Assembly: GCA_018822665.1 (NCBI GenBank)
Contig: JAHJJX010000024.1
Coordinates: 1-55,490 of the forward strand
DNA: 55,490 nucleotides
Reading direction: 5' to 3'
Origin: a bacterium
Lineage (GTDB): Bacteria; Campylobacterota; Campylobacteria; Campylobacterales; Sulfurimonadaceae
Below the pieces are notes generated by a model that did no database searches, was not told the origin of the DNA, and saw only the letters and a program-made list of their open reading frames with translations. The position numbers were made by a program, and so were the translations under genes. Shown here piece by piece: positions 143-47,555 of this stretch (positions within the stretch are counted from its first letter, which is position 1; every line of letters begins with the position of its first letter).

Positions 143-171
143 ATAGCTTATACAATTTTATTCAAAACTAA

Positions 172-264: not shown

Positions 265-279
265 TTTAGAAACCTAGTC

Positions 280-1490: not shown

Positions 1491-1496
1491 TATAAT
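1491..1496 (+). promoter_or_regulatory. -10 box of uvrB, start-proximal
   Basis: TATAAT sits only 7 nt before the uvrB ATG at 1504. A normal start of transcription 6-8 nt downstream would give an mRNA beginning at or next to the start codon. No Shine-Dalgarno is present. Confidence 0.6.
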
Positions 1497-1503
1497 TCCA
1501 CCA

Positions 1504-3486: not shown

Positions 3487-3493
3487 GAAAAAC

Positions 3494-4060
3494 ATGGAAG
3501 ATACTTTTAGCAATTTGGCCACTTACGGCTATATAGGACTTTTTTTATACTCGCTTGGCGGAGGCTTTATAGCTCTTATAGGAGCTGGGGTACTTTCATT
3601 TATGGGGAAAATGGACTTAAGCTTGTCTATTTTCATCGCATTTGTCGCAAATGCTCTAGGGGATGTTTTACTATTTTACATGGCAAGATATCAAAAAAGC
3701 ATGATGATGGACGGATTGCGAAAACATAGAAGAAAACTGGCACTTTCACATATTATGATGAAAAAATACGGTTCATGGATTATTTTATTTCAAAAATTTG
3801 TCTATGGAATCAAAACACTTATTCCCATTGCAATAGGACTTACTAAATACGATTTTCAAAAATTTGCAATTTTGAATGTTTTAAGTGCAGGAGTTTGGGC
3901 GTTGGTATTTGGTCTTGGCAGTTACTATTCCGGAAATATATTAGTCAAAGCTGCCGAAGCTATCGGCGATAAACCTTGGATTGCACCTATTGTGCTTGTA
4001 GTGATGGGTGGAAGTTTATGGCTTTATTTAACAATGGCCACAAAGAAAAAAATAAAATAA
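3494..4060 (+). CDS. DedA-family inner-membrane protein
   Basis: 188 residues with four to five hydrophobic segments (about residues 10-35, 42-62, 95-118, 125-150, 160-182). DedA/SNARE-associated proteins are lipid scramblase-like membrane proteins (several flip undecaprenyl phosphate or phosphatidylethanolamine) needed for envelope integrity. The internal G-x2-IPI-AIG pattern (LIPIAIGLTKYDF) and the F-x3-G-Y segment fit the family. It begins 7 nt after uvrB and ends exactly one base before an inverted repeat shared with convergent pckA. Which lipid it moves cannot be read from sequence. Confidence 0.8.
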   Translation: MEDTFSNLATYGYIGLFLYSLGGGFIALIGAGVLSFMGKMDLSLSIFIAFVANALGDVLLFYMARYQKSMMMDGLRKHRRKLALSHIMMKKYGSWIILFQKFVYGIKTLIPIAIGLTKYDFQKFAILNVLSAGVWALVFGLGSYYSGNILVKAAEAIGDKPWIAPIVLVVMGGSLWLYLTMATKKKIK

Positions 4061-4092
4061 CCTTGGCATGTGGAAAGTTCCACATGCCAAGG
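4061..4092. terminator. Perfect inverted pair of GGCATGTGG motifs acting as a shared terminator
   Basis: CCTTGGCATGTGGAA (4061-4075) and its exact complement (4078-4092) form a 15-bp stem with a 2-nt centre between convergent dedA-like and pckA genes. On the minus strand it is followed by a T-rich run, giving pckA a good intrinsic terminator. The plus side has a weaker T tract. Both arms carry the full repeat consensus (4065-4073 and 4080-4088). Confidence 0.85.
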
Positions 4093-4101
4093 AAAAGTTT
4101 C

Positions 4102-5688: not shown

Positions 5689-5752
5689 AATTTACCTTCT
5701 GGTACATTTGATTAAAATGTTTAAAACATAATCGTGAGTGAAATTATCGCTC

Positions 5753-5758
5753 ACTATA
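5753..5758 (-). promoter_or_regulatory. Probable -10 box of pckA
   Basis: On the minus strand AGGTATAGTGAG contains TATAGT, about 65 nt before the pckA start codon. An AT-rich stretch lies upstream as expected for Campylobacterota promoters. There is no clear -35. Confidence 0.4.
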
Positions 5759-5873
5759 CCTAAATTAAAAGTAAATATTTTTCGTTATTTCTTTATTTTT
5801 ACTACAAAAGAACATGAATATTTTTTAAATTTTTTTATAATCAATAAGAAGCAGTTTTTAAGGAGTTGTCGTG

Positions 5874-5879
5874 TAGAAT
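5874..5879 (+). promoter_or_regulatory. Possible -10 box of tRNA-Val
   Basis: TGTAGAAT (extended -10 form) ends 13 nt before the tRNA. An alternative TATAAT lies at 5836-5841. Confidence 0.35.
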
Positions 5880-5892
5880 TGCGGAGTTTTTT

Positions 5893-5967
5893 GGTCGCGT
5901 AACTCAGCGGTAGAGTGCCACCTCGACAAGGTGGAGGTCAACAGTTCAAATCTGTTCGTGACCACCA
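5893..5967 (+). tRNA. tRNA-Val (anticodon GAC) with C at position 33
   Basis: A 75-nt cloverleaf with encoded CCA. The acceptor stem GGTCGCG/CGTGACC has one G-T pair, the D stem is ACTC/GAGT, the anticodon stem is CCACC/GGTGG, and the T stem is AACAG/CTGTT with loop TTCAAAT. The anticodon GAC is at 5925-5927, reading GUC and GUU valine codons. Position 33, almost always U, is C here (loop TCGACAA), and base pair 10-25 is A-T in place of the usual G-C. Stems are otherwise intact. It stands alone between pckA and an outer-membrane protein gene. Confidence 0.92.
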
Positions 5968-5993
5968 TTAAAACCTCGCAGAGTTCCTTCAGC

Positions 5994-6578: not shown

Positions 6579-6611
6579 TTATATTTTTCCTTTTAAAATT
6601 TTAGCTATCGA

Positions 6612-9446: not shown

Positions 9447-10625
9447 TTAAAGCACATCGCTTATATCGACAATATTAATTTTTGCATTAATATTATCGGC
9501 ACAGGCAACACCGCTGCTAAATGCCCATTGAAAATTATAACCGCCGAGCTCACCCGTAACATCAACCACTTCACCTATAAAATATAAATTTTCCACATGC
9601 CAAGATTCTAATGTTTTTGGATTTAATTCTTCTGCATAAAGACCGCCGCGGCTTACCTCCGCCTTGGTAAAACCAAAATTTCCGGCCGGTGCAAACTCAT
9701 AGTTGTGAATTTTTAAAAGATTTTCTTTGGCATGCGGAGTTATTTTTTTACACTCAACATCTTCCACGTTTAAAGCTTCTAAAAGAGACTTAGACAATCT
9801 TCTAGGCAATGGTATAACGGAGCTGAGAAGTTTTTTACTTCCTTTGATAAGCGTAAGGATATTATTATTGGGCAAGAAATCTATACATATATTTCCCTTT
9901 TGCCAATAAAGAGATGCACTTAAAACTGCCGGTCCGCTTATCCCCTTGTGTGCAAAAAGCATCTCCTCTTTTAAGATTTTATCATTCACTTTTATATGTA
10001 CATACGCGCTCAGTCCGCTTAATTCTTTCATCCAAAACTGCTCTTTTTGAAGTGTCATTCCTACAAGGGCGGGTGAAAACTCTTTCACCTTTAAGTCAAA
10101 ACTTTTAGCAATATCCAGCCCTATTTCACTTGCTCCCAAAGTTTTAAAACTTTTTCCTCCCGTAGCGATAACTACTCTTTTGGATTTTAAAATTCCTTTT
10201 GAAGTTTTTGTCTCAAAAATATCATCACGCTTTTTAACTTCAAAAATCTCTCTGTTTAAAAGCATTTCCACATGCCGCGTTTTTTTCTTTAAAACATCAA
10301 TAATCTCATCCGCACTCTCTTTGCAAAAGTAGTAACGATTTTTTCGTATAAGAGGTTCTACCCCGTTTTTTTGTAAAAAATGAAGCAAATCATCTTTTGA
10401 AAAAGTACAAAGGACACTGGATATAAGTTCTTTATCCCCCTCAAAATTATCCACGCTGACATCGGTGTTGGTAATATTGCATTTTCCGCCACCGGAAATT
10501 TTTAATTTTTTGCACACATTCTCATTTACATCCACAATTCCCACATGCCACTTTTTATTCAAAGAAGAAGCGCACATCAAGCCGCTTGCACCCGCACCCA
10601 AAATTAAAACATCATATATTTTCAT
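9447..10625 (-). CDS. HI0933/YhiN-family flavoprotein (FAD-dependent oxidoreductase)
   Basis: About 392 residues. The N-terminus MKIYDVLILGAGASGLMCA is a Rossmann dinucleotide-binding motif (GxGxxG). GGGKCNITN near residue 50, VVIATGGKSFKTLG near 160, and the C-terminal VDVTGELGGYNFQWAFSSG are hallmarks of this family of NAD(P)/FAD proteins, whose substrate is unknown. I place the start at ATG 10623-10625: a TATAAT box lies only 6 nt upstream, so the earlier in-frame ATG at 10640 would be outside the mRNA. Three GGCATGTGG copies lie in this gene, read as WHVE, RHVE and WHVG. It is divergent from rimO. Confidence 0.85.
   Translation of the reverse strand: MKIYDVLILGAGASGLMCASSLNKKWHVGIVDVNENVCKKLKISGGGKCNITNTDVSVDNFEGDKELISSVLCTFSKDDLLHFLQKNGVEPLIRKNRYYFCKESADEIIDVLKKKTRHVEMLLNREIFEVKKRDDIFETKTSKGILKSKRVVIATGGKSFKTLGASEIGLDIAKSFDLKVKEFSPALVGMTLQKEQFWMKELSGLSAYVHIKVNDKILKEEMLFAHKGISGPAVLSASLYWQKGNICIDFLPNNNILTLIKGSKKLLSSVIPLPRRLSKSLLEALNVEDVECKKITPHAKENLLKIHNYEFAPAGNFGFTKAEVSRGGLYAEELNPKTLESWHVENLYFIGEVVDVTGELGGYNFQWAFSSGVACADNINAKINIVDISDVL
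9593..9601 (-). repeat. GGCATGTGG motif
   Basis: Exact copy in the HI0933-like gene, extended form CTTGGCATGTGGAA; read as WHVE. Confidence 0.85.
10268..10276 (-). repeat. GGCATGTGG motif
   Basis: Exact copy in the HI0933-like gene, followed by AAA; read as RHVE. Confidence 0.85.
10541..10549 (-). repeat. GGCATGTGG motif
   Basis: Exact copy in the HI0933-like gene. It is the only copy not followed by A (G instead); read as WHVG. Confidence 0.8.
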
Positions 10626-11997: not shown

Positions 11998-12991
11998 AAA
12001 CTCCTCTTTATCTAAACTAAAAGATAAAAAAAACCTTTTAGCATTTTCCGGAGGGGCAGATTCTACTGCCCTTTTTTTCTTGCTTTTAAAAAATAAAATA
12101 CACTTTGACATAGCCATTGTAAATTACGGTATTCGAGAACAAAGCAAAAAAGAGGTGCAATACGCAAAACAACTCGCCTCAACACACAATCTCCAATGCC
12201 ACCTGTTGAATGCGCCAAAAATAGATAAAAACTTTGAATCAAGCGCTCGAGAGATTCGGTATAATTTTTTTGAAGAGCTCATCATTGCACATGGTTATGA
12301 AAATCTTATAACGGCGCATCATCTTGGGGACAGATTTGAGTGGATGCTTATGCAGTTTTGCAAAGGCGCGGGCTGTGCTGAAATCGCCGGAATGCAAGAG
12401 GAGCAAAAAAGAGGATTTTACACACTCATCCGTCCTTTATTAAAATTAGACAAAAAAGAACTTTTACACTTTTTACATTCTCAAAACAAACACTATTTTG
12501 AAGATGAAACAAATCTGGATGAAGATATCAAACGAAACTCTTTTCGACACAATTATTCCATTCCTCTTCTAGATAAATACCTCAGCGGAATTAAAAAAAG
12601 TTTTGATTATCTCGACGAGGACAAAGAGAGTTTAATTCAAGAGATTGAGATAAAAAGTATCCATGCCTTTGCATATTTTAAACGCTCAAAAAATCAAAGA
12701 ACAGATATTTTTACAATCGATAAGTATCTAAAATCAAAATTCCACATGCCCACAGCCAAAGAAAGAGAACTTCTAAAAACGAAAGATACCTGCATCTTGG
12801 GGAGAAAATTTGTAGTGAATCAAAATACACAATATGTATTTATCATGCCCTTTTTGCACGAGAATCTCCACATGCCAAAAGAGTTTAAAGAAGAGTGCAG
12901 AGTATTAAAAATAGAGCCTAAGCTGCGTGCTTATCTCTACCAAGACAAGGATGCTTTTTTAAAAATAAAACAATTACTTCGTGCTGTTTAA
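11990..12991 (+). CDS. tilS: tRNA(Ile)-lysidine synthase
   Basis: 333 residues, short for the family and with a reduced C-terminus as in other Campylobacterota. TilS attaches lysine to C34 of tRNA-Ile(CAU) with ATP so that it reads AUA. The PP-loop LLAFSGGADSTALF lies near residues 16-29. NYGIREQSKKEV, TAHHLGDRFEW and RPLLKLDKKEL are further family motifs. The start overlaps the end of rimO by 8 nt. Its last 18 bases overlap the end of the convergent pilO-like gene. Two CCACATGCC copies are read here as HMP. Confidence 0.93.
   Translation: MLENSSLSKLKDKKNLLAFSGGADSTALFFLLLKNKIHFDIAIVNYGIREQSKKEVQYAKQLASTHNLQCHLLNAPKIDKNFESSAREIRYNFFEELIIAHGYENLITAHHLGDRFEWMLMQFCKGAGCAEIAGMQEEQKRGFYTLIRPLLKLDKKELLHFLHSQNKHYFEDETNLDEDIKRNSFRHNYSIPLLDKYLSGIKKSFDYLDEDKESLIQEIEIKSIHAFAYFKRSKNQRTDIFTIDKYLKSKFHMPTAKERELLKTKDTCILGRKFVVNQNTQYVFIMPFLHENLHMPKEFKEECRVLKIEPKLRAYLYQDKDAFLKIKQLLRAV
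12742..12750 (-). repeat. GGCATGTGG motif
   Basis: Exact copy antisense to tilS; coding strand reads FHMP. Confidence 0.85.
12868..12876 (-). repeat. GGCATGTGG motif
   Basis: Exact copy antisense to tilS, in TTTTGGCATGTGGAG form; coding strand reads LHMP. Confidence 0.85.
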
Positions 12992-15043: not shown

Positions 15044-15951
15044 TATGCATCTCCATCGCAAAGAGGATGTGCTTTGTTGTAATTTTGTTGTTTCAATGCA
15101 CTGCCTAATTTTGTATATATTTGTGTTGTTGCCATCGACGAATGACCAAGGAGCTCACTCACATCAGAGATTCTAGCACTATTATTTAATAGTGCCGTCG
15201 CATACGAGTGGCGAAGCTGATGCGGAGTAACTTTAATAGCAACTCTTTTAAACACTTTAGTAACGATATATCTTAAACTATTTTCGCTTAATTTTTCGCC
15301 TTTTTTTTCAAAAAGAAATTTTTTCGGTGATTTTTGAATTAAATATTGTTCCAGCAATACGCGGGTTGAATGCAGAAGAGGGACATCTCTTTGTTTCTTT
15401 CCTTTACCCAAAACTCTTACCCATTCTTCGGATATATCCGCAAGCTCCAAAGAGGCAAGTTCCGATATTCTCAGCCCCAAAGTATAAAGAGTAACAACAA
15501 CGAGCCTTTCCTCCAAATCTGCATATTCTATTGCTTCAAGGATATGTTTGTGCGATATAGGTTTGGGCAGGGTTTTAGGCACTTTGATACTCTCATCTGC
15601 TTTTAAAACAACCTTCAGTCCATGTTCGTTTAAATACTGGGCAAAAGATCTTATGGCACTTAGTTTTTTTGAGATTGTTTTGGGATTTAAGGAGGATATT
15701 TTTATACGATAAGGCATAAGATTAAAAAATACATTCGTATCTTCTTCAACAATTTCCACATGCCCTGCGAAGGATGAGAAACTATCCTTTGGATATCCAA
15801 AAGCTTCTTGTAAAGTTTCATCATAACTTTTTATGGTTAAATCAGAGTAAGCCCTTATATCTTCAAGATACTGCAAAAACTCCGATTTGTGTTTATCGAT
15901 TAACTTTTTCAAGTAATTTCTCAAACCCGCTGTGATATTTTGCTGCTTCAT
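15043..15951 (-). CDS. xerH: XerH-type tyrosine recombinase
   Basis: Up to 302 residues. The C-terminal catalytic domain has GLRISEL (Arg), GKGKKQRDVP (Lys), HQLRHSYA (His-x-x-Arg), LGHSSMATTQIYT (His and nucleophilic Tyr), so the active site is complete. XerH is the single recombinase that resolves chromosome dimers at difH in Campylobacterota in place of XerC/XerD. The N-terminus is uncertain: the ATG at 15951 lies 59 nt inside the preceding gene and has no clear ribosome site. A TTG near 15912 would remove most of the overlap. The downstream PilM-like start is embedded in the xerH stop. No difH site was recognised in the window. Confidence 0.85.
   Translation of the reverse strand: MKQQNITAGLRNYLKKLIDKHKSEFLQYLEDIRAYSDLTIKSYDETLQEAFGYPKDSFSSFAGHVEIVEEDTNVFFNLMPYRIKISSLNPKTISKKLSAIRSFAQYLNEHGLKVVLKADESIKVPKTLPKPISHKHILEAIEYADLEERLVVVTLYTLGLRISELASLELADISEEWVRVLGKGKKQRDVPLLHSTRVLLEQYLIQKSPKKFLFEKKGEKLSENSLRYIVTKVFKRVAIKVTPHQLRHSYATALLNNSARISDVSELLGHSSMATTQIYTKLGSALKQQNYNKAHPLCDGDA
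15756..15764 (-). repeat. GGCATGTGG motif
   Basis: Exact copy in xerH, followed by AAA; read as GHVE. Confidence 0.85.
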
Positions 15952-16348: not shown

Positions 16349-16970
16349 GTTGAAGCAATTCCTTTTTTATTAAGGTTCTTGCTTCTTCTAAGCCCATTTC
16401 ACTTATATCTTTGAGCTCAGAAGCATAGTAGTTTAAAGAACCGAAAGGTTTTGGTATGATAAATTTATCCCATGAATTTAATTGCCAAAATTTTGTAGGC
16501 TTTATCTCCACTAAAACAATTTTGGCTTTTGTTTTTTGAGCCATAACAATTATGCCGTCTGCAACTTCATGCCGAGGACCCTTTGGACCATCTGGAGTAA
16601 TTCCTATGTCATACCCGTCTTTAATGCTTTTTATCCCCTGCATTAATACTCTTGTCGCATTTCTATTTGTCGAACCCGCGATGGTATCAAGCCCGAAATA
16701 CTTTATAGTTTTGGAGATTAAAGCTCCATCAAAATGGCTTGAAATCAACACCTTGGCATGTGGAGCTTTTCTGTAATGGGAGTAAAGATAAGGGAACATT
16801 AAAAGCTCTCCGTGCCAACATGCAAAGATGGTCGGCTCGGTGCTTATAAAATCTGGAGAATGAAAATTTTTTTTATTTGTCAGGTATAAAAACCTTATCA
16901 GCAAAAAACCTATAAAAGGAACAATGGCTAAGGCACTAGAGCGAAGTATTTTTTTAAACAACCACTTCAC
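16338..16970 (-). CDS. DUF374-type lysophospholipid/lauroyl acyltransferase-like protein
   Basis: 210 residues with an N-terminal membrane segment (about residues 12-30). [23 protein letters not shown] and [14 protein letters not shown] are hallmarks of DUF374 proteins, which are distant relatives of LpxL/LpxM acyltransferases. The usual catalytic His-x4-Asp is in the variant form seen in the family. Substrate unproven; lipid A or phospholipid acyl transfer at the inner membrane is likely. It overlaps miaB by 17 nt, the same order as in Helicobacter pylori. Confidence 0.8.
16755..16763 (+). repeat. GGCATGTGG motif
   Basis: Exact copy, CCTTGGCATGTGGAG; coding strand of the acyltransferase reads PHAK. 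Confidence 0.85.
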
Positions 16971-19834: not shown

Positions 19835-19860
19835 TGACATGTGGAACTTTCCACATGCCA
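19835..19860. terminator. Inverted pair of GGCATGTGG-type motifs between convergent nusA and permease gene
   Basis: TGACATGTGGAA (19835-19846) faces TTCCACATGCCA (19849-19860) with a 2-nt centre and one mismatch. The right arm (19851-19859) is an exact motif copy; the left has one change. T-rich sequence flanks are modest. It probably ends both transcripts. Confidence 0.7.
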
Positions 19861-19866
19861 AGAACC

Positions 19867-23557: not shown

Positions 23558-24265
23558 TTATTTATTGAGTGCTTGCGCATAATTAATCATTGAACAAAAA
23601 TGCTCTGCATAAAGCGCTGCACTTCCGACCAATATACCATCCACATTTTTAAGAGCTAAAACATCCTTGGCATTTGTGACTTTTACGCTTCCGCCATATA
23701 AAAGCGGTGCCTTGGATTTCTTTTTTAATTTTGTATGTAAAACTTCTATATCATTTAAAGTGGGTGTTAATCCGGTGCCGATAGCCCAAACCGGTTCATA
23801 AGCGATAACGAGATTTTCATAATTTAAATCTATCCCTGCATATTGCGTATCCAAATATTTGAGCAGTTCATCTTCACCGGCTTTTCTGATTTCCAAAGGC
23901 TCCCCGATACAGTAAACGATTCTAAAACCAAGATTTTTATAAAAATCAAATTTTTTAGTAATGCTTTCTTGAGTTTCACCTAGAATATGGCGGCGTTCGC
24001 TGTGCCCGATAAGAATAGTTTTTATACCAAACTCTTCGAGATGCTCCAAACCTATCTCCCCTGTATACGCACCATTAAGGACAGGATAAGCATTTTGAGC
24101 ACCGATTGTCAGTTTTCCGGCATGTGGATTCAAGCTTGACATAGCTGGAAAAACTAGAACTTCTTGTGATATATTATTTGCATTTAAAAAACGCTCCACC
24201 TCATCAACATACTTAGAAGTTTGCTTACGTGTCAGATTAGTTTTTAAATTTGCTGCAATTATCAT
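23558..24265 (-). CDS. tpiA: Triosephosphate isomerase
   Basis: 235 residues, the short form found in Campylobacterota (most are about 250). It interconverts dihydroxyacetone phosphate and glyceraldehyde 3-phosphate. The catalytic Lys is in AANLKTN, His in IGHSERR, and Glu in AYEPVWAIGTG. The phosphate-gripping YGGSV and GILVGSAAL close the barrel. It starts 4 nt after the pgk stop codon. Confidence 0.95.
   Translation of the reverse strand: MIIAANLKTNLTRKQTSKYVDEVERFLNANNISQEVLVFPAMSSLNPHAGKLTIGAQNAYPVLNGAYTGEIGLEHLEEFGIKTILIGHSERRHILGETQESITKKFDFYKNLGFRIVYCIGEPLEIRKAGEDELLKYLDTQYAGIDLNYENLVIAYEPVWAIGTGLTPTLNDIEVLHTKLKKKSKAPLLYGGSVKVTNAKDVLALKNVDGILVGSAALYAEHFCSMINYAQALNK
24119..24127 (+). 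repeat. GGCATGTGG motif
   Basis: Exact copy in tpiA, TCCGGCATGTGGATT; coding strand reads PHAG. Confidence 0.85.
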
Positions 24266-27441: not shown

Positions 27442-27470
27442 GGCATATGGAAACTTTATTTCCACATGCC
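27442..27470. terminator. Inverted pair of GGCATGTGG-type motifs between convergent rsfS and MltF-like gene
   Basis: GGCATATGGAAA (27442-27453) faces TTTCCACATGCC (27459-27470) with a 5-nt loop and one mismatch. The right arm (27462-27470) is an exact copy of the motif; the left arm has one change (TA for TG). Confidence 0.7.
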
Positions 27471-30906: not shown

Positions 30907-33045
30907 TCAAGAAACTAATTTTGCAATGTTATATGCAAGAAAAGATAACATATATGCGCTTACCGAAGTAAATGCCAAAAGATAAAAGAAATATTTGATT
31001 CCTCCTGCCTCTCGGGTGAACACTATGGAAGCCGCCAGACACGGAAGATAAATCATAATGACAACTATAAATGCCACCGCAGAAGCAAAAGGGATATTTT
31101 TTGAAATCACTTCTTTTAATGAACTGTTTTCTTCATCGACGCTGTCTCCCAAAGAGTAAAGGACACCCAAAGTTGAAACGACCACCTCTTTTGCTGCAAG
31201 TCCCGTTTGCAGGGCTACACTCATTTTCCAGTCAAAGCCAAGCGGTTCAAACAGAGGTACCGAAAATTTACCTATCATTCCCAAATAACTCTGTTCCAGA
31301 TGGGCTTGTGCTAATTTATTTGTTAAAATCATTTTATCTTTTTCACTGATGGCATTTTCTATTTTTGTTGCGTACTCTGTTTTTAGCTCTAAATTATGTG
31401 GATAATTACTTAAAAACCAAACCAGCATCGAAGCGGCCGCTATAAAAGTACCGGCTTTTTTCAGATACATCCATGTTTTTGTCATTACTGTATGCCAAAT
31501 AAGTTTCATGGACGGCAGTCTATACTTTGGCATCTCCATAACAAAAGGCTCATCTTTGCCCTTAAATGCCGTAAGCTTTAAGACTTTGGCGGCTATAAGT
31601 CCTAAGAGAGCCCCTGTAATATAAATAGAAAATAGAATATTTCCTGCCATATCGGCAGAGAAAAATGCGCCTGCAAAAAGTACGTAAACCGGAAGCCTCG
31701 CTCCGCAGCTCATAAAACCAATAATAAAAAGAGTTAAGAGTCTGTCTCTGTCATTTTTAAGTATTCTCGCACTCATATAAGCAGGAATTGAACATCCAAA
31801 ACCGGTGACCAAGGGGATAAAGGATTGTCCATGGAGTCCAAATTTATGAAAAAATCCATCAAGTAAAAATGCGACTCTCGACATATATCCCGTACTCTCA
31901 AGCAGTGCAATTCCTATAAAAAGTATCATAATATTGGGAACAAAAAGAATAACTGCTCCCACACCCGCTATAACACCATTCACAATAAGAGAACGGATAT
32001 CTTCATTGGGTATTGTAGCGCCTATCGTATCTCCAAACCAGCCAAAGAAACCGTCTATCCATTCCATCGGTATAGAGCCTATCTCAAAAGTAAGCTGAAA
32101 TAAACTCCACATAAAAAACAAAAAGATAGGAATTCCAAAAACCGGATGAATCAATACAGAATCTATTTTTTCAGTTAATGATTTTTTTTCTTCCTGCTTT
32201 TCTTGTTTTAAAACTTCGGTAACGATTCCTCTGTTAAATGAAGCATACTCTTCTGCAAAAGACTCTTTGATATCATCGCTGTTATGATGAAGTTCCACAT
32301 GCCGCGATGCATCAATGAGAATTGGTTGAAGTTCTGTCCATAGAGGATTATCATGAAGTTTCGCATAGGTTTTTTTATTGTTTTTTAAAAGATTGATAGC
32401 CACATTTCTGTATGAATTTATTGCTTCATATTTATGTTTTTCTAAATAAGAAGCAATAATAGAAATCTCTTCTTCCACGGCTTCGCTAAAAATCAGTTTC
32501 GATTCCTGATTTGGAGATTCATGCTGCATTATCAGCGCTTCTAAAAGACTTTGTATTCCAAGTTTTGTCACGGCGGAAACTTTCACACATGGGATGCCCA
32601 GCAGCTGCGACATATAATCAGCATCTATCTCTATCCCCTCTTTTTGCGCTTCATCAGTCATATTTAAGGCGATAACCATTTTTTTGCTCATACTCATAAG
32701 CTCTGCGCTGAGTTGAAGATTTTTTTCCAAGTTTGTAGAATCTATAACATTGATAATAAGGTCATAACTCTCGGCACACAAGTAGTCATGTGTGACTCTC
32801 TCTTCGATTGTGTAATCCGTAAAAGCATAGGTTCCGGGCAAATCGACAACCGTAAAGTGGTAGTTTTTATAATCAAACAGCACCTCAGATTTTTCAACCG
32901 TCACACCTGTAAAATTTCCTACATGCAAATGCGCATTGGAGATGGAATTTATCAGCATACTCTTGCCGACATTGGGCTGTCCGACTAAAGCTATTTTTAT
33001 ATGGTTCGCTATTACCGGACACGCTTTTCCCGTCATATCTCTCAT
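30907..33045 (-). CDS. feoB: Ferrous iron transport protein B
   Basis: 712 residues. The N-terminal GTPase domain has G1 GQPNVGKS, G3 DLPGTYAF and G4 NMTDE. A helical GDI-like region follows, then a polytopic membrane domain with two Gate motifs, including SFIPLVTGFGCSIPAYMSAR near residue 405 and the Cys-containing PCLAAS near the end. FeoB moves Fe2+ across the inner membrane. Its ATG overlaps the feoA stop (ATGA). A Fur-box-like palindrome upstream of feoA fits iron repression. One motif copy is read as RHVE. Confidence 0.97.
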   Translation of the reverse strand: MRDMTGKACPVIANHIKIALVGQPNVGKSMLINSISNAHLHVGNFTGVTVEKSEVLFDYKNYHFTVVDLPGTYAFTDYTIEERVTHDYLCAESYDLIINVIDSTNLEKNLQLSAELMSMSKKMVIALNMTDEAQKEGIEIDADYMSQLLGIPCVKVSAVTKLGIQSLLEALIMQHESPNQESKLIFSEAVEEEISIIASYLEKHKYEAINSYRNVAINLLKNNKKTYAKLHDNPLWTELQPILIDASRHVELHHNSDDIKESFAEEYASFNRGIVTEVLKQEKQEEKKSLTEKIDSVLIHPVFGIPIFLFFMWSLFQLTFEIGSIPMEWIDGFFGWFGDTIGATIPNEDIRSLIVNGVIAGVGAVILFVPNIMILFIGIALLESTGYMSRVAFLLDGFFHKFGLHGQSFIPLVTGFGCSIPAYMSARILKNDRDRLLTLFIIGFMSCGARLPVYVLFAGAFFSADMAGNILFSIYITGALLGLIAAKVLKLTAFKGKDEPFVMEMPKYRLPSMKLIWHTVMTKTWMYLKKAGTFIAAASMLVWFLSNYPHNLELKTEYATKIENAISEKDKMILTNKLAQAHLEQSYLGMIGKFSVPLFEPLGFDWKMSVALQTGLAAKEVVVSTLGVLYSLGDSVDEENSSLKEVISKNIPFASAVAFIVVIMIYLPCLAASIVFTREAGGIKYFFYLLAFTSVSAYMLSFLAYNIAKLVS
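32295..32303 (-). repeat. GGCATGTGG motif
   Basis: Exact copy in feoB, CGGCATGTGGAAC; read as RHVE. Confidence 0.85.
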
Positions 33046-36165: not shown

Positions 36166-36723
36166 ATGAAATTTTTATTTACACCCTCTTCCCACTTTAA
36201 TCTGGCAAACCTTTTTACATTTGTAAACATTACGGCTGGGCTTATGGCCACGTATTTTATTACTCAAAATAATTTCTTTCTTGCCATAATTTTAGCTTGG
36301 ATTGGTGGTGCATTTGATATATTTGATGGGAAAATTGCCAGAAAATATAAACTTTCAAATGAATTCGGTGTTCAATTAGACAGTTTTGCAGATTTTTTGA
36401 GTTTTGTTTTAGTCCCTGTCTTTTTAATATTTCAAGCAGTTTATGTAGCTTCTTTGTCCGGCATGTGGATTATTGCGGCGGCAATAGTGAGTATTTATTA
36501 TGTTATTTCAGGATTGAGAAGACTTATTCATTTTAATCTGCATGCGCAAGTCGGTGAAGTTTCCAAATACTTTACGGGTGTTCCAACACCCCTTGGCGCG
36601 ATTTTACTTTGGCTGGTTTATCTCGCCAATGCATACGAATTTTTATCGGTTGCACTTGTTATGGCTTTAATGGCCATCATCGGATGGACTTTGAATTCTA
36701 AACTCAAAGTTCCGCATCCATAA
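36166..36723 (+). CDS. pssA: CDP-diacylglycerol-serine O-phosphatidyltransferase
   Basis: 185 residues from ATG 36166. It makes phosphatidylserine from CDP-diacylglycerol and serine, the step before phosphatidylethanolamine. The CDP-alcohol phosphotransferase motif D-G-x2-A-R-x8-G-x3-D-x3-D is complete (DGKIARKYKLSNEFGVQLD, then SFAD). About six membrane segments follow. The short type II form with PTPLGAILLWL fits PssA. Transcribed divergently from the porin pair across two Fur-like sites. One motif copy is read as GMW. Confidence 0.88.
   Translation: MKFLFTPSSHFNLANLFTFVNITAGLMATYFITQNNFFLAIILAWIGGAFDIFDGKIARKYKLSNEFGVQLDSFADFLSFVLVPVFLIFQAVYVASLSGMWIIAAAIVSIYYVISGLRRLIHFNLHAQVGEVSKYFTGVPTPLGAILLWLVYLANAYEFLSVALVMALMAIIGWTLNSKLKVPHP
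36460..36468 (+). repeat. GGCATGTGG motif
   Basis: Exact copy in pssA, TCCGGCATGTGGATT, same flanks as the tpiA copy; read as SGMWI. Confidence 0.85.
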
Positions 36724-37413: not shown

Positions 37414-38100
37414 ATGAAAGATATGTTGAAAAATTTCACCATCCTTTATGTAGAAGATGATGAGATGGTTCGCAAAAATGCCTCAGAGTATTTAAGCAGA
37501 GTTTCAAAAAAAGTGCTCGAAGCAAGAGATGGAAAAGAAGCCGTCGGCATGTGGAAAAAGTACAAACCCGATATTATCATTACAGATATAAACATGCCTA
37601 AATTAAACGGGTTGGACATGGCAAGCTACATCAGAGCAAATGACAAAGATGTACAAATCATCATTGCAACAGCCTACTCCGATACAGAATATTTGCTTCG
37701 TGCGGTGGAACTTCAACTCGTCAAATACATCATAAAACCTGTGACAAAAGAAAAGCTGATAACTGCTTTGGAGAAATCTATGGAACATATGAAAGATAAA
37801 AGCAAATTCAATTTGCAACTCTCTTTCACATGCCGATACAACGCGTATGAAAAAATTATTTATGAAAATGGCAATGAGATTAAACTCACAAAAAACGAAC
37901 TCTTATTTTTGGACCTTCTCGCACACCATCGTTCAAGAGTTGTCACTTACGAAGAGATAGAAAATGCGATTTGGGCGAATGAGGGGATGAGTCAGGATGC
38001 AATCCGTTCACTTGTACGCGGGTTGAGAAAAAAAGTACCCGATAATGCAATAGAAAACATATCGGGAGTAGGATATAAACTACTAATTTATACAGAATAA
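37414..38100 (+). CDS. OmpR-family response regulator, orphan
   Basis: About 228 residues from ATG 37414; a GTG three codons earlier is embedded in the ribosome site. The receiver has YVEDDEMV, phospho-acceptor Asp in IIITDINMPKLNG, and KPVTKEKL with the conserved Lys. The C-terminal winged helix ends in SGVGYKLLIYTE. No sensor kinase gene lies next to it, so it may pair with the kinase at 44439 or another elsewhere. One motif copy is read as VGMWKK. Confidence 0.9.
   Translation: MKDMLKNFTILYVEDDEMVRKNASEYLSRVSKKVLEARDGKEAVGMWKKYKPDIIITDINMPKLNGLDMASYIRANDKDVQIIIATAYSDTEYLLRAVELQLVKYIIKPVTKEKLITALEKSMEHMKDKSKFNLQLSFTCRYNAYEKIIYENGNEIKLTKNELLFLDLLAHHRSRVVTYEEIENAIWANEGMSQDAIRSLVRGLRKKVPDNAIENISGVGYKLLIYTE
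37546..37554 (+). repeat. GGCATGTGG motif
   Basis: Exact copy in the response regulator, TCGGCATGTGGAAA; read as GMWK. A one-mismatch copy (TCACATGCC) lies further on near 37827. Confidence 0.85.
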
Positions 38101-38656: not shown

Positions 38657-41600
38657 TCAATCCGATTTTTTTAATACAAACCTATGATACAAAATAGGCA
38701 AGAGTACCAAAGTTAAAAAAGTAGATGAAACAAGTCCGTTTATAATAACAATGGCGAGAGGTTTTTGTATCTCCGAACCCGGACCTGTTGCAAAAAGCAT
38801 AGGAAGAAGTCCAAGGGCTGCTATAAAAGCCGTCATAAGAACGGGACGAAGTCTTCGTATCGAACCCAATATTACAAGCTCAAAAGAATCTTTTACCGTG
38901 TGTTTTAGAAAATTAAAATAATTCACCATCACGACTCCATTAAGAACGGCAATCCCCATCAAAGCAATAAACCCCACCGTTGCGGGAACGCTCATATATT
39001 CACCCGTAAAATAAAGTCCAAAAACACCGCCGATAAGGGCAAATGGAATATTAAGCAAAACCAAAAATGCCTGTAAAGAGGACTTGAAGGTCATCAGCAA
39101 TAAGATAAAAACCAAACCTATACTCAGAGGAATAATAAAAGAAAGTTTTTTCGCGGCTCTTTGCTGGTTTTGATATTCTCCGGCAAAATCTATAAAATAT
39201 CCCTGAGGCAATTCTACGCCTTGTGTTATTTTAACTTTTAACTCATCCACAAAACTGACCAAGTCACGACCGACAACATTTGTCTGAACTAAACTTTTTC
39301 TCATGCCGTTTTCATGGTCTATCTGCACAGGTCCTTGTGTCATCCTAAACTCAACCAACTCATTTAATTCAATACTGTTTCCGTCTGCTAAAATATACTG
39401 CAGGTTAATACTTTTATGCATACTTGTTTGCAACTCTTTGGAGCCTTTTATCATAAGAGGAATTCTTCTTAAATCTTCTTGAATAATTCCAACTTCAACC
39501 CCGTTGATAGCGCTTTGCAGGTACGAAGCAAGCGCATCTCTCGCAACGCCGTATCGGGCCATTGCCTCATCCTTAAAGAAAATTTCCCAGTATGCAACAC
39601 CCTCATTTGCTTTTTTGTAAACATCACTGCTCCCTTGTGTGTCTTCTGTGATTTTTGCAATCTTTTTTGCAATCTCCTCAAGTTTTTGGGAATCTTCCCC
39701 GTAAATATTAACAACAATATCGCCGCGTGAACCGCTGAGCATCTCAGAAATTCTCATCGCAATTGGCTGGGTAAATCCATATTCAATCCCGACAAATTCA
39801 TCTAACACGACACGAAATTGATCTAGCAGCCATGCATTTGAAGGAACTCTCCACGCATCTTTTGGCTTTAACACCAAAAAGGTATCCGTATCATTCAAAC
39901 CCATTGGGTCAAGCCCTATCTCATCACTCCCGCCACGGGCAACAATAGAGATAATTTCCGGAACTTCCCGAAGAAGGGCTTGTTGTATTTTCAAGTCAAT
40001 ATCTCTACTCGCTTCAAGTGAGATAGAGGGATTCTTTTCTATTCCAATAATGACATTTCCCTCATCGAGTGTCGGCATAAAAGTTTTACCGACCTGCAAG
40101 TAAACGCCAACCGCCAATATCCATAAAATACCGGCAATGATAAAAACAAGTTTTTGACGGGCAAGCGTCCATTTTAAAATTTTCTCATACCTATTTTCCA
40201 AAAATACCATCAAAGGAACGTTGGCATGTGGAACCTGTTTTAAAACATAAAAACTCACTACGGGTATAAATGTAAGAGCCAAAACCAAAGAAGATGTTAA
40301 TGCAAATACTATACTCAAAGCAACGGGAACGAACAGTTTTCCTTCCAGACCCTCTAAAGTCAAAAGAGGCAAGAAAAATATAATAATTATCAAAATACCG
40401 GTAAAAATAGGACTTGCAACCTCTTTTGCAGCTCTTGTGACAAGCGCTAGTTTGGGTTCGTTTTTATATTTCTCATCATGCAGGTACGCACTGATATTTT
40501 CAACCATAACAACACCTGCATCCACTAGCATACCTATGGCAATTGCCAAACCGCCCAAACTCATAAGATTTGCGGTAATTCCGAAATAACCCATGGCAAT
40601 AAATGTCATCATAGCCGCAAAAGGCAAGATAATGGCTACACTAAAAGCAGAAGCAAAGTTTCCTAAAAATATAAAAAGAACGATGACAATTAATACCAAA
40701 GCTTCTAAAAGTGCTTTAGAAACTGTGTTAATTGCTTTTGAAACCAAATCTGAACGGTCATAAAATATATTGAGCGTTGTCCCTTTTGGCAAATCTTTTT
40801 CTATTTTTGAAAGTTCAGCTTTTACCCTTTGCAACACACCGGATGTATCTACCCCTTTTCTTGAGAGTATCAAACCTTGAACGGCTTCATCTTTTCCATC
40901 TTTTGTAACAAAGCCTGCGCGTGTCAATGAACCGATTTGCACAGCGGCAATGTCCAAGATTCTTATATCTCTTCCCTCTTCATGTTTTATGATGAGTTTT
41001 GAGATATCCAGTGTATCTTTAAGCCTTCCTTCACAACGGATAAATAAACTCTGCTCACCCAAAGAGAGTCTGCCTATCCCGTCATTTTGGTTATTTCGGA
41101 CTAAGGTGTCTTTGAGCATTTCCATGTTGATTTGATACTGCTTCATCTTCGCAAAATCCGGAACTATCTCATAGGTTTTTACATAACCGCCTAAGGCATT
41201 TGTTTCTGCAACACCGTCTATTCCTCTGATTCTTTTATTGATGACCCAGTCAAGTAAAGTTCTCTTTTGCATCAAATCCAAAGTATCAGACTCGATAGTA
41301 AACATTAAAACTTCACCAAGAGGCGTTGTAATAGGAGCCAAACCGCCCGAAACATTTGAAGGAAGCGTATCTGTCACCTCGCTCAATCTTTGGGCAACCT
41401 GCTGTCTCGCCCAGTAAATATCCACTCCATCCTCAAAATCAATGGTGATGTCACATAAACCGTATTTGGATATGGAACGGACTATGGTTTGATTTGGGAT
41501 ACTCTGCATGTTTTGCTCTATCGGAATCGTTACACGCGATTCTATCTCTGCAGGTGTCATCCCAGGTGATTTTAAAATCAACTTTACTTGCGTAGGTGCT

Positions 41601-42783: not shown

Positions 42784-43965
42784 TTATTCTCCAAATTCTA
42801 AATCAGCTGTTTTGTATAGTTCAAAAAGCTCATAATAGTATGTTTTTTTAATTTCTAACATTTCTAATAGGTTAAGAGAGTAAGAGCGCGCGGCATCAAG
42901 ATACTCCAGCATCGTTCCTTCACCCTCAACCAAAGCTGATTTCGAGAGTTTTACCAACGCTTCATTGAGTGGCAATACCTCATCTTCGAGCAGTTTCATT
43001 TCATCATACAGCGCTTCTAATTTTAGAACAAGTGCGCCAGAGGCATTTTTTATTTCAGCTTCTATGGAAGCTTTTTCATTCGAATAGGCCGAACTTAAAA
43101 AAAGCTGTTCTGCTTTTAGTTTTTCTTTTTCGCTTGTCACTCCGCCCAAAGGTATACTTAAGCCCAGCGTATATCTTTGCGTATCTAATTCTTGCTCATA
43201 CAAAAGCTCATACCCGAGTGATGTGATGAGAGAATCATGCATCGCATAAAATGCCTTTGATGAATTTTGCTTGTAGGTTATTGTTTTGAGTTCATCATGT
43301 TCACTGATTGGAGTGAGTTCCACATGCCTCACAGGAAGAAGCAAATCTTGACAACTGATGGTATCGATAAGAAGATTGTCAACACTCTTTTGCAAACTTG
43401 AAAACTGTTCCAGATAAGCCCTTTTATATGTGTTTACGCTCTGATGCAACTTTGCTAAATCCAACTTGCTAAAAAGTAAATCTTTTTTAGATATTTCACC
43501 CAGTTCGTACGCTTTTTGCAGTTGAGCAAATCTTTTGCCCTCCTCTTCAAAAAGTTCTTTTGCCTTGTCTTGCATCTCTTTAGCGATACACGCGCTGTGA
43601 TATTTTGAAGCAATATCCAAAGTGATTAAATGCAGCTCATGCATTGTTTCTTGCTGTATTGCCTGAGTGAATTCTTTCACTCCCTTCTCTTTGGAAGATA
43701 TTGAAAACGGGTGGTTAATATCTTGGGAAATTCCCATCGAATACTCTGCTCCGTCTTGTGTGCTATCTTTGGCATGCGAGACACTCAGACCGAGATTTGG
43801 AGATTTGTAGGTAGCAAAAAGCTCATTTTGTGCGATTTTAGATTCTTTTTTGTCTAAAATCGCTTTTGTTTTATTGCTTACTTTTGATGACTCAATAATT
43901 TCCGACAAATTATATGCATAAAGATTAAGAGATATTAAAAGAGATAAAATTAGTGTTATTTTCAT
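42784..43965 (-). CDS. TolC-family outer-membrane efflux channel
   Basis: 393 residues. A short signal peptide (MKITLILSLLISLNLYA) is followed by a long helical tunnel with SVSHAKDSTQ and heptad coiled coil in residues 110-200 and 270-350 (LKLEALYDEMKLLEDEVLPL). It forms the trimeric outer-membrane exit duct of the CBA pump. Somewhat short for the family. It leads the outer-membrane/adaptor/pump order as in czcCBA. One motif copy is read as RHVE. Confidence 0.85.
   Translation of the reverse strand: MKITLILSLLISLNLYAYNLSEIIESSKVSNKTKAILDKKESKIAQNELFATYKSPNLGLSVSHAKDSTQDGAEYSMGISQDINHPFSISSKEKGVKEFTQAIQQETMHELHLITLDIASKYHSACIAKEMQDKAKELFEEEGKRFAQLQKAYELGEISKKDLLFSKLDLAKLHQSVNTYKRAYLEQFSSLQKSVDNLLIDTISCQDLLLPVRHVELTPISEHDELKTITYKQNSSKAFYAMHDSLITSLGYELLYEQELDTQRYTLGLSIPLGGVTSEKEKLKAEQLFLSSAYSNEKASIEAEIKNASGALVLKLEALYDEMKLLEDEVLPLNEALVKLSKSALVEGEGTMLEYLDAARSYSLNLLEMLEIKKTYYYELFELYKTADLEFGE
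43320..43328 (-). repeat. GGCATGTGG motif
   Basis: Exact copy in the TolC-like gene, AGGCATGTGGAAC; read as RHVE. Confidence 0.85.
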
Positions 43966-44438: not shown

Positions 44439-46298
44439 CTAAAGTTCTATGATAAAACAAACACCCTCTTTTGTATTTGCTACCGTAAGTTTGCCATTGA
44501 GATGCTCTTCAATAATCATCTTGGACATATACAAGCCGAGCCCCGTACCGCTTTTTTTATCTTTGGTTGAGAAATAGGGTTCAAATATTTTATCTTTTAT
44601 CTTCTCATCTATCCCCCCTCCGTTATCGCAAACCTTTACTATGAGTTTATCTTCTTGGCATGTGGAAGTGATAGTTATTTTTGGATTTTTTACTTTATTT
44701 TGAACTAAAACATCTTTTGAATTTTTAATCAAATTGAGTATCACCTGCATAAATTCATTGTTATAAATATGCGTTAAATCTCTGCCGCTCGAATAAAGCT
44801 CTATCTCAATTCCATCATTTTCCAGAGATTTGCTGATAAGCCCTACGCTTTTCTTAATTGCATCACTCACCAAAACAAACTGCTTTTCTTTCTCAGGTCG
44901 AAAATAATTTCTAAAGTCATCAATAGTAACCGACATAAATTCTAAAAGGTCCGTTCCCTCTTTTATCTTTATATTGAGATACTCTTTGTTTAATTCTTTG
45001 TAGTCATACGCCGAATCAATATTCATAAAAATATAAGACATCTGATTAAGAGGCTGTCTCCATTGATGGGCAATCATACTCAGCATATCTCCCATTTCAG
45101 CCATTTTTGACTTTTGTATTAGTATCTTGTCTTTTTGTCTGTGGGATTCAAGTTCATCAAAGACTCTTTGTTCTAGCGATTCGTTAAGTCTTTGAAGTTC
45201 ATCGGTTCTTTTTTGTACCTCTTGCTGATAATGCTTAAAAATCTGATTTATTTTTCTTGAAAGAAGAAGGGAAAGAATGACAATAAAGATAACAATTCCC
45301 GCGGATGATTTCATAATAAACAAAAGCTCGTCATCAAGCACTTTTTCCAAATCTTGTTGTTTTTTTAGTTCTTGATTGTTCATGGCAGATACATCAAAAC
45401 CATACACCAGATGCCAGTCAAACGGTTTGTAATATTCACTGTAATAGTAATACCCGTCTACTTTATCCTTATACCATTTTGCCTCTTGGAGCAGATTTTT
45501 ACTAATAACATCCAAATATTCACTCCCAAGCTTTTCACCCATTTTTGATGACAAAAAGATAGCTTTTTTATTATCATACAGCCCCATAAAATCCGATTCG
45601 TCAAGCGGTATTCTCTGAACCATCTCTAAAAGAGATTTTTTTAAATCCTCCTGTTTTTGTACAATATGCATGCTTGAGCCGATAAACCAACCAAACATAC
45701 GGAGGTCTTTCACCAAAATAATCTCTCTCGTTTTGGATTTTTTCGAACGACTGTAAATAAATCCTTCACTTTTTTTTCTGACAATTTGAAGTTCTTCAAG
45801 TATAATCGCCCTTCCGTCGGCATCTTCATAATTAATTAAAGGTTTTGTATCTGTTTGCTGTTTTGCATTAAGAATACTGTTTCCTTTATAGTCTGTCAAA
45901 AAAATACAATTATTATAATTGCTGCACGGGGTCAATTGAAGTACGTCTATTATTTGTTCTTGTATCTCTTTGTGCGTTTTTTTCCCTTTATACTTTTCAT
46001 AGATAAATCGTGCGCTTTCATACGCCATATTTACCCTTGTCTGCAACTCTTTTTTCGTTTCTTCTTCCACGCGCGAATTTCTATAATCAAACAAAAGATT
46101 CAGTTGCTTCACCCAAACCTCACTCTTTGCTTTTTTTGAATCTACATGTTCGTCTATGGCCCGCTCTTTTGCCGAATGATAATAATTTGTAACTTTTTCA
46201 AGGTAAAAACTGCTTATAACAAAACTGACAATCAAAACGAGAGAAAGGGGTATAAATACTATAAAATACGGTATATATTTGTTGTCAATCGGCTTCAT
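44439..46298 (-). CDS. Sensor histidine kinase with a periplasmic Cache-like domain
   Basis: 619 residues from ATG 46296-46298 (AGAGG upstream). A first membrane helix (about residues 9-32) precedes a long periplasmic sensor (35-330) with NNCIFLTDYKGN, a predicted double Cache fold, then a second helix (about 335-355), coiled coil, H-box with MLSMIAHQWRQPLNQM, N-box NLIKNSKDVL, and G-boxes DNGGGID and GTGLGLYMSK. The HWRQPLN H-box is common in Campylobacterota sensors. The 5' end overlaps rmuC. No regulator gene is adjacent. Ligand unknown. Confidence 0.86.
   Translation of the reverse strand: MKPIDNKYIPYFIVFIPLSLVLIVSFVISSFYLEKVTNYYHSAKERAIDEHVDSKKAKSEVWVKQLNLLFDYRNSRVEEETKKELQTRVNMAYESARFIYEKYKGKKTHKEIQEQIIDVLQLTPCSNYNNCIFLTDYKGNSILNAKQQTDTKPLINYEDADGRAIILEELQIVRKKSEGFIYSRSKKSKTREIILVKDLRMFGWFIGSSMHIVQKQEDLKKSLLEMVQRIPLDESDFMGLYDNKKAIFLSSKMGEKLGSEYLDVISKNLLQEAKWYKDKVDGYYYYSEYYKPFDWHLVYGFDVSAMNNQELKKQQDLEKVLDDELLFIMKSSAGIVIFIVILSLLLSRKINQIFKHYQQEVQKRTDELQRLNESLEQRVFDELESHRQKDKILIQKSKMAEMGDMLSMIAHQWRQPLNQMSYIFMNIDSAYDYKELNKEYLNIKIKEGTDLLEFMSVTIDDFRNYFRPEKEKQFVLVSDAIKKSVGLISKSLENDGIEIELYSSGRDLTHIYNNEFMQVILNLIKNSKDVLVQNKVKNPKITITSTCQEDKLIVKVCDNGGGIDEKIKDKIFEPYFSTKDKKSGTGLGLYMSKMIIEEHLNGKLTVANTKEGVCFIIEL
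44657..44665 (+). repeat. GGCATGTGG motif
   Basis: Exact copy, CTTGGCATGTGGAAG; coding strand of the kinase reads TSTCQE, a unique frame for the motif. Confidence 0.85.
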
Positions 46299-47550: not shown

Positions 47551-47555
47551 ATGCC
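47547..47555 (-). repeat. GGCATGTGG motif across the rmuC start codon
   Basis: Exact copy, ATTGGCATGTGGAAA. The GTG of the motif is the rmuC start codon. Confidence 0.85.

What the first reader, a model, noticed from the sequence alone, without database searches (positions are those of the whole stretch)
4061..4092. Motif pair used as a perfect transcription terminator
Between convergent genes two full consensus copies face each other: a 15-bp perfect stem, 2-nt centre, T-rich minus-strand tail. In Haemophilus and Neisseria, inverted pairs of uptake sequences also serve as terminators. Two further convergent pairs (19835-19860 and 27442-27470) use the same device.
Basis: partly seen in the sequence, partly recalled or inferred. 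Interest (0 to 1): 0.6.

Follow-up and report, generated by a model that had tools for sequence, protein, structure and literature searches.

The report
Uptake-signal-like motif pair, Sulfurimonas
The perfect hairpin between two genes is made of two copies of a short word repeated about 860 times in this Sulfurimonas genome; the word behaves like a self-recognition tag for DNA uptake, a device reported so far in two other bacterial families, while its role as a transcription terminator is only partly supported.

Summary
In detail: window 4061-4092 is a perfect 15-bp inverted repeat of GGCATGTGGA. The word occurs 859 times in this 2.5-Mb Sulfurimonas genome (reversed control 2), mostly singly and inside genes.

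The terminator reading is partly supported. Inverted pairs are about 18-fold over chance, favour convergent gene ends, and (small numbers) outlast single copies in a lineage where the word decays. As a class they show no U-tract excess and no orientation preference. The T-rich tail at 4061 is the lysine codons of the DedA-like gene; no relative read has the full pair there.

The larger finding is the word. Nineteen of 135 genus genomes carry it (31-1302 copies); others carry words sharing a CATGT centre (TACATGTAGA, AGCATGTGGA, TACATGTAAA). In two sister species with comEC split or undetected, copies are scrambled in numbers fitting neutral erosion from about 1300. This suggests an uptake-signal system in Campylobacterota, beside those of Neisseriaceae and Pasteurellaceae. 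Uptake is untested, the comEC link is one evolutionary event, some species with few copies keep comEC, and three incomplete genomes with these words show no comEC.

The parts
4061..4092 (.). Inverted pair of full motif copies between the DedA-like gene and pckA; 15-bp stem, 2-nt centre; T-rich tail on the minus strand only
4037..4060 (-). T-rich stretch after the hairpin on the minus strand; it is the antisense of the DedA-like C-terminal codons ATKKKIK-stop
19835..19860 (.). Inverted pair after nusA, one arm imperfect (GACATGTGGA); no T-rich tail on the nusA strand; minus strand passes the consensus terminator scan weakly
27442..27470 (.). Inverted pair between rsfS and mltF, one arm imperfect (GGCATATGGA)
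9592..9601 (-). single motif copy inside a gene (9447-10640)
10267..10276 (-). single motif copy inside a gene (9447-10640)
12741..12750 (-). single motif copy inside a gene (11990-12991)
12867..12876 (-). single motif copy inside a gene (11990-12991)
15755..15764 (-). single motif copy inside the recombinase gene (15043-15951)
16755..16764 (+). single motif copy inside a gene (16338-16970)
24119..24128 (+). single motif copy inside a gene (23558-24265)
32294..32303 (-). single motif copy inside a gene (30907-33045)
36460..36469 (+). single motif copy inside a gene (36082-36723)
37546..37555 (+). single motif copy inside a gene (37405-38100)
40223..40232 (+). single motif copy inside a gene (38657-41743)
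43319..43328 (-). single motif copy inside a gene (42784-43965)
44657..44666 (+). single motif copy inside a gene (44439-46313)
46804..46813 (+). single motif copy inside a gene (46285-47550)
46886..46895 (+). single motif copy inside a gene (46285-47550)
47417..47426 (-). single motif copy inside a gene (46285-47550)
47546..47555 (-). single motif copy counted as intergenic; it straddles the start of 46285-47550

Best explanation
The pair is a by-product of a genome-wide DNA uptake signal. GGCATGTGGA is a self-recognition word for natural transformation in this Sulfurimonas lineage: DNA carrying it would be imported preferentially through ComEC, and recombination of imported DNA would keep about 860 copies fresh (inferred). 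Opposed copies that land close together between genes form stable hairpins, which are kept at gene 3' ends for a secondary role, such as an mRNA 3' barrier or a Rho-assisted end. Only occasionally, as on the pckA strand at 4061, does one become a classic U-tract terminator by borrowing T-rich neighbouring DNA. Shown here: the counts, related words in other genomes, 3'-end placement, no U-tract excess, scrambled copies in the two species where comEC is split or undetected, and better survival of pairs in one of them. Inferred: uptake specificity, the receptor, and the hairpin's action on transcripts.
For: 859 copies, control 2, strand-balanced 422/437. Consensus about 16 bp with unrelated flanks. 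Intragenic 42 sense / 41 antisense; neighbouring copies (more than 60 bp apart) 60 same-strand vs 44 opposite, p 0.14. 19 of 135 genus genomes have 31-1302 copies, the rest 13 or fewer. Related words: TACATGTAGA with 100 or more matches in 12 of 135; AGCATGTGGA, 14 in 76 kb of G399; TACATGTAAA with 80-2330 matches in 16 of 17 f10 genomes. The two near-palindromes match on both strands of one site, so sites are fewer than matches (30 sites for 43 matches in 200 kb of G300). Of the 19, only G412 (88) has clearly raised TACATGTAGA; next G342, 12. Natural knock-out: G413 and G351 are sisters (100/100) and group with G322+G350, which have about 1300 copies. In G351 comEC is split by about 8.1 kb; in G413, 99% complete, there is no match at E<=10. 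They have 183 and 141 exact copies with 494 and 448 one-mismatch copies, spread over positions in the stretches read. From 1300 copies neutral erosion predicts 396 and 351 one-mismatch copies; about 419 and 373 remain after a background of 75 that I chose within 53-116 seen in 15 non-carriers. Exact pairs left in G413: 2 in 220 kb against 0.05-0.08 expected.
Against: No uptake or transformation experiment and no receptor. ComEC is in 78 of 79 good genus genomes with or without the word, so one evolutionary event links loss and erosion. Three incomplete genomes with these words show no ComEC match: G339 (314 GGCATGTGGA, 71% complete), G343 and G361 (202 and 204 TACATGTAGA matches, 89% and 78%); gaps could explain this but it was not shown. 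In f10, G061 (7) and G146 (80) have few TACATGTAAA matches yet keep ComEC. G404, G392, G315 and G412 have few exact and many one-mismatch copies yet keep ComEC; other words or decay, not resolved. A site-by-site comparison did not discriminate: in the intact relative G289 only 2 of 5 aligned own-genome sites are exact. Two of the words are near-palindromes, unlike known DUS/USS, and may not be the same system. Much of the sequence is from draft or metagenome assemblies.
Confidence: 0.65

Rival explanations
1. The pair is first of all an intrinsic (Rho-independent) terminator: RNA polymerase pauses at the hairpin and releases at the U-tract.
For: Strong hairpin on both strands. The minus strands of 4061 and 19835 are the first two of 20 terminator-like sites listed in window 1-20000. 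Pairs favour gene 3' ends and outlast singles in G413.
Against: No U-tract excess as a class: T after / A before 0.69 / 0.62 per 5 nt at 13 convergent pairs; 2.71 T per 8 vs background 2.75. No orientation bias. At 4061 the tail is coding sequence of the DedA-like gene and no relative read has the full pair; G322 has an imperfect pair about 60 nt further on.
Confidence: 0.2
2. The word is a highly-iterated-palindrome-like sequence maintained through a solitary DNA methyltransferase acting on the CATG centre (compare cyanobacterial HIP1), not through uptake.
For: All words found share a CATGT centre; TTTACATGTAAA and TCTACATGTAGA are palindromes, in coding sequence at 10 of 17 TTACATGTAA sites in G056 and 28 of 30 TACATGTAGA sites in G300. 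In C. jejuni, uptake depends on methylated RAATTY (PMC10046745, passages).
Against: In the window's lineage the word is asymmetric and about 12-16 bp long, more than a methylase site needs. Erosion where comEC is split or undetected is not predicted. Methyltransferase genes were not searched.
Confidence: 0.17
3. A repair or segregation signal (Chi, KOPS or matS type) or a dispersed REP-type repeat.
For: High copy number, spread along all non-masked sample stretches, median gap 1401 bp.
Against: No significant strand run (60 vs 44 neighbours, p 0.14), balanced sense/antisense, no repeat unit beyond about 16 bp, 83 of 133 exact copies inside genes.
Confidence: 0.05

Closest known systems
DNA uptake sequence (DUS) of Neisseriaceae
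   Same: Hundreds to thousands of copies of a 10-12 bp word, clade-specific dialects sharing a short core, inverted pairs at gene ends (PMC3630211, PMC2397512, PMC1852404; passages read)
   Different: Different word and different phylum; hairpins here lack A/T tails and orientation bias; some of the related words are palindromic; receptor and uptake untested
Uptake signal sequence (USS) of Pasteurellaceae
   Same: Core word in high copy number, more than one dialect (PMC12616744, passages); core plus weaker flanks here
   Different: No long A/T-rich extension here; different core; receptor unknown
Methylation-dependent uptake in Campylobacter jejuni (RAATTY)
   Same: Same class (recalled); self-DNA recognition in transformation (PMC10046745, passages)
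   Different: There a 6-bp methylated site is needed; here a long word is overrepresented
HIP1 of cyanobacteria
   Same: Overrepresented palindrome, like TTTACATGTAAA and TCTACATGTAGA (PMC4390886: start of abstract in listings; a term search of its text for six terms on Campylobacterota and TACATGTA found nothing)
   Different: The window's word is not palindromic; a link to a methyltransferase was not tested

Membership tests
DUS/USS-type uptake signal | Short word in hundreds to thousands of genomic copies on both strands | tested here: met
   859 copies, 422/437, control 2
DUS/USS-type uptake signal | Copies in coding and intergenic DNA, no longer repeat unit | tested here: met
   83 of 133 exact sample copies in coding; flanks random
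DUS/USS-type uptake signal | Frequent close inverted pairs at gene ends | tested here: met
   21 + 19 exact pairs genome-wide; 7 of 10 placeable sample pairs convergent at up to 1 mismatch; 13 convergent among the 30 of 40 exact pairs read; 8 inverted and 0 direct pairs in the sample
DUS/USS-type uptake signal | Dialects with a conserved core that follow the phylogeny | tested here: inconclusive
   Words share CATGT; in a 30-row pckA tree GG and TA labels need 2 changes each against shuffled means of 5.3 and 5.2, with 15 rows in neither group; one gene, partial sampling
DUS/USS-type uptake signal | Natural transformation machinery present | tested here: inconclusive
   Only ComEC tested: 421-codon open frame in the own genome; pilus, ComEA and DprA not tested
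DUS/USS-type uptake signal | Word decays when transformation is lost | tested here: inconclusive
   Seen in G413 and G351, a single event; low counts with ComEC present in others and three incomplete carriers without a ComEC match
DUS/USS-type uptake signal | Tagged DNA is bound or taken up preferentially | not testable with these tools
   needs an uptake or transformation assay
DUS/USS-type uptake signal | Specific receptor (ComP-like minor pilin) | not tested
Rho-independent terminator | Stable RNA hairpin just after a gene | tested here: met
   distances
Rho-independent terminator | U-tract after the hairpin | tested here: not met
   Met on the minus strand at 4061 and weakly at 19835; not met for the class
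Rho-independent terminator | RNA 3' ends at the site | not testable with these tools
   no transcript data
Highly iterated palindrome (HIP1-like) | Palindromic word | tested here: not met
   GGCATGTGGA is asymmetric; TTTACATGTAAA of other genomes is palindromic
Chi/KOPS-type polar signal | Strand polarity along the replichore | tested here: not met
   neighbouring copies 60 same / 44 opposite, p 0.14; a local test only, contigs not ordered

The most novel reading that the evidence does not exclude
Campylobacterota evolved their own self-recognition code for DNA uptake, independently of Neisseriaceae and Pasteurellaceae. Its words share a CATGT centre and range from palindromes (TTTACATGTAAA, with about 2,000 strand matches to TACATGTAAA, roughly half as many sites, in several genomes of one family; TCTACATGTAGA) to asymmetric words (AGCATGTGGA, GGCATGTGGA) within one genus. 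Where comEC was lost the word erodes neutrally, while hairpin pairs at gene ends are kept for a separate role.
Probability: 0.55. Interest if true: 0.85.

Novelty: new variant of a known kind. Interest (0 to 1): 0.72.

Why it matters
[quoted passage not shown] Another lineage, with four related words inside one genus and a natural comEC knock-out, would allow comparative study of how uptake codes arise, change and decay, and would predict barriers to gene exchange among Sulfurimonas, widespread sulfur oxidisers (recalled). It could also separate two roles that are confounded in Neisseria: the word as an uptake tag, and the hairpin pair as a gene-end element that outlives the tag.

Tried and rejected
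A first home-made gene caller covered only 49% of the sample and was replaced (90.4% coding); numbers are not used. Three short own-genome contigs came back entirely as N (7,969 bases); they add nothing to counts but stand in the 403,459-base denominator. REP/MITE: rejected because flanks are unrelated. Chi/KOPS: rejected for lack of local polarity. Terminator conserved at this locus: rejected from the pckA 3' ends of 30 loci, one without and one with little downstream sequence; G322 has an imperfect pair about 60 nt further on. A dialect explanation for low counts in G413 and G351: rejected because mismatches are spread over positions, whereas G399 shows one dominant word. Direct comparison of orthologous motif sites was uninformative: 5 alignments from G322/G350 to G413/G351, some duplicates, 0 exact, identity near that of the flanks; from the own genome 2 of 17 exact in G413 (duplicates included), 0 of 6 in G351, and in intact controls 2 of 5 in G289 and 0 of 2 in G322. 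Rfam at gathering thresholds gave only a tRNA. A link of low copy number to ComEC loss in family f10 was looked for and not found. On rechecking I lowered the main confidence from 0.70 to 0.65 and the novel case from 0.60 to 0.55, mainly for three incomplete genomes with these words and no ComEC match.

Full report
OBSERVATION. Window 4061-4092 is CCTTGGCATGTGGAA-AG-TTCCACATGCCAAGG, a perfect 15-bp inverted repeat directly after the stop codon of a DedA-like gene (NCBIfam matches below cut-off) and 9 nt from the convergent pckA stop. The region folds at -28.9 and -28.3 kcal/mol on the two strands.

THE WORD. GGCATGTGGA occurs 21 times in the window and 859 times in the 2,507,095-base genome, 422 forward and 437 reverse, against 2 for the reversed pattern. 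From 133 copies in my own-genome sample (window plus 20 stretches, 403,459 bases of which 7,969 read N) the consensus is tCTtGGCATGTGGAAnTt, with no shared sequence beyond. With a home-made gene caller (90.4% coding), 83 of 133 exact copies lie in genes, 42 sense and 41 antisense. Of the 133, 32 lie within 60 nt downstream of a gene end (random 5.4%, p 9e-13), and 6 within 60 nt upstream of a gene start (random 5.6%).

ORGANISM. nusA (window 18687-19826) is up to 88% identical to records most of which are titled Sulfurimonas (80 best of 344 kept). I place the window in Sulfurimonas on that basis; the own genome itself is unnamed.

PAIRS. Genome-wide there are 21 tail-to-tail and 19 head-to-head exact pairs with a 0-14 nt gap, about 1.1 of each expected by chance (arithmetic). 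In the sample there are 8 inverted and 0 direct pairs with such gaps. With up to one mismatch per arm and gaps up to 20 nt there are 11 pairs; one lies at an edge, and of the other 10, 7 are convergent, 2 tandem, 1 divergent and 0 coding, against 10 convergent of 33 intergenic non-edge single copies (Fisher p 0.034). The result depends somewhat on the threshold: exact arms give 5 convergent of 7 placeable, two mismatches give 8 of 14 with 3 in coding. Of the 40 exact genome-wide pairs I read 30 (15 of each kind): 13 convergent, 11 tandem, 2 divergent, 4 overlapping the edge of a called gene.

TERMINATOR TEST. Kingsford and colleagues reported A-tail 3.33 and T-tail 3.18 per 5 nt for tail-to-tail uptake-sequence hairpins in N. 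meningitidis, and a preferred orientation (PMC1852404, passages). Here the 13 convergent pairs have 0.62 and 0.69, below the 1.74 and 1.73 expected from intergenic composition; these 5 nt partly belong to the extended stem. Counting 8 nt after the extended stem, those 13 pairs have 5 or more T at 4 of 26 strand-ends, all four on the listed minus strand. At gene ends of the sample, motif hairpins have 2.71 T (3 of 17 gene ends with 5 or more; both ends of a convergent pair count), other hairpins 3.32 (4 of 19), background 2.75 (15% with 5 or more). So the class lacks a U-tract excess and has no orientation bias. But the T-rich tail at 4061 is the antisense of the codons for ATKKKIK-stop. Among 30 pckA loci (one without and one with little downstream sequence) only the own genome has the full pair; G289 has a one-mismatch copy (AGCATGTGGA); G322 has an imperfect pair (1 and 2 mismatches) about 60 nt further on; G337 and G350 show none by eye, although T-rich stretches stand there in several relatives. 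After nusA, the own pair has counterparts in 4 of 80 named loci (L032, L034, L036, L052; one locus had almost no downstream sequence); other relatives show, by eye, different inverted repeats or none.

DISTRIBUTION AND RELATED WORDS. In 298 genomes of the class only the own genome and G289 carry the word in number; all others have 11 or fewer. In 135 genus genomes 19 have 31-1302 copies, the rest 13 or fewer. k-mer scans of stretches from relatives found related words: TACATGTAGA, TTACATGTAA / TACATGTAAA and AGCATGTGGA. TACATGTAGA has 100 or more strand matches in 12 of 135 genus genomes. TACATGTAAA has 80-2330 strand matches in 16 of 17 genomes of family f10 and 45-424 in six other genomes, 20 or fewer in the remaining ones of 298. 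Sites that are full palindromes match on both strands, so sites are fewer than matches: 30 sites for 43 matches in 200 kb of G300, and in 40 kb of G056 29 matches with 14 full TTTACATGTAAA palindromes. All words found share CATGT. Stretches of G398, G397, G304, G307, G060, G133, G191, G134, G074, G047 and G122 showed no such word, some in small samples; G287 had a raised count only in the whole-genome search (22 vs 5 for TACATGTAGA). I did not prove that the palindromic words belong to the same system.

NATURAL KNOCK-OUT. ComEC (PF03772) is found in 123 of 135 genus genomes, 78 of 79 good ones. The good exception is G413; a comEC protein search at E<=10 finds nothing there, and in its sister G351 finds two pieces about 8.1 kb apart (residues 1-172 and 164-416). 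A pckA tree (30 rows) groups G413+G351 with 100/100 support, and with G322+G350 (100/100), which have 1298 and 1302 copies. G413 and G351 have 183 and 141 exact copies but 494 and 448 one-mismatch copies, against 270 one-mismatch copies for 859 exact in the own genome and 53-116 in the 15 non-carriers given (34 of 135 genomes given). In the stretches read the mismatches are spread over positions. Starting from 1300 copies, neutral erosion predicts 396 and 351 one-mismatch copies; 419 and 373 are seen after subtracting 75, a value I chose within the non-carrier range; with 1000 or 1600 starting copies the predictions are 339/305 and 443/388. This fits a word kept fresh by transformation. Against a simple rule: G404, G392, G315 and G412 also have few exact and many one-mismatch copies but keep ComEC matches; in f10 G061 and G146 have few TACATGTAAA matches with ComEC present; and the incomplete genomes G339, G343 and G361 carry 314, 202 and 204 matches of one of the words without a ComEC match (71%, 89% and 78% complete).

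PAIRS OUTLIVE SINGLES. In 220 kb of G413, 5 of 13 exact copies sit in inverted pairs, against 19 of 133 in the own-genome sample (p 0.041), and 2 exact pairs remain where 0.05-0.08 are expected (P 0.001-0.003). One of them is convergent, 14 nt after a gene end; the other lies at the edge of a stretch, 14 nt from a gene. In G351 one pair carries matching changes on both arms and keeps a perfect stem; none of its 9 exact copies is in a pair. Numbers are small, but they suggest that the hairpin has its own value apart from the tag, which favours a gene-end role without the classic U-tract.

LITERATURE. A 2025 paper calls Neisseriaceae and Pasteurellaceae the only families known to use such words (PMC12616744, passages); inverted pairs are described as terminators there (PMC2397512, PMC3630211, passages). 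My searches for this word and its relatives, and for uptake sequences with Sulfurimonas, Sulfurospirillum or Campylobacterota, showed no description in the rows listed: 20 of 40, 20 of 54, 15 of 30, 0 found, 12 of 198, 10 of 225, 0 found; a term search inside PMC4390886 found nothing. Lists were capped and the library lacks most subscription papers, so novelty is provisional.

CONCLUSION. The best reading is an uptake-signal-type word in Campylobacterota (0.65), whose close inverted pairs are kept at gene ends for a secondary role. Uptake, receptor and transcript ends remain to be tested.

Noticed in passing
G351 locus L268 (3353-4117) and upstream: comEC is split by about 8.1 kb; the part of the insert that I hold encodes a radical SAM protein with a weak B12-binding match and a uracil-DNA glycosylase-like protein. 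The rest of the insert was not read.
   Followed up: partly
L147-L150 (G287): Top repeated words look like a CRISPR repeat array; not checked with a CRISPR tool.
   Followed up: no
L143-L146, L273-L279 (G413); L045, L048, L053, L096: A longer dispersed repeat with CAACCCCCTAAAG is frequent in G413 and also lies after nusA in several named relatives.
   Followed up: no
L290-L292 (G315); L051, L067, L071: Another dispersed repeat with CTCGCAATGAC, also seen after nusA in relatives.
   Followed up: no
L243-L246, L155-L158 (G398, G397, G304): Words around TAGATGCTA / CAGATGCTA are several-fold enriched in three Sulfurimonas without the CATGT words; possibly another dispersed word.
   Followed up: no
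window 15043-15951: Tyrosine recombinase gene (phage integrase family) that itself contains a motif copy.
   Followed up: no
window 5893-5967: tRNA-Val (GAC).
   Followed up: no
window 5994-9419: Two genes, 194 and 935 aa: the first has no NCBIfam or Pfam match, the second only a weak Pfam match below cut-off and was not scanned against NCBIfam.
   Followed up: no
G000 sample (window, L111-L130): 9-mers GACACTGAC / GACACAGAC about 30-fold enriched, perhaps one repetitive gene.
   Followed up: no
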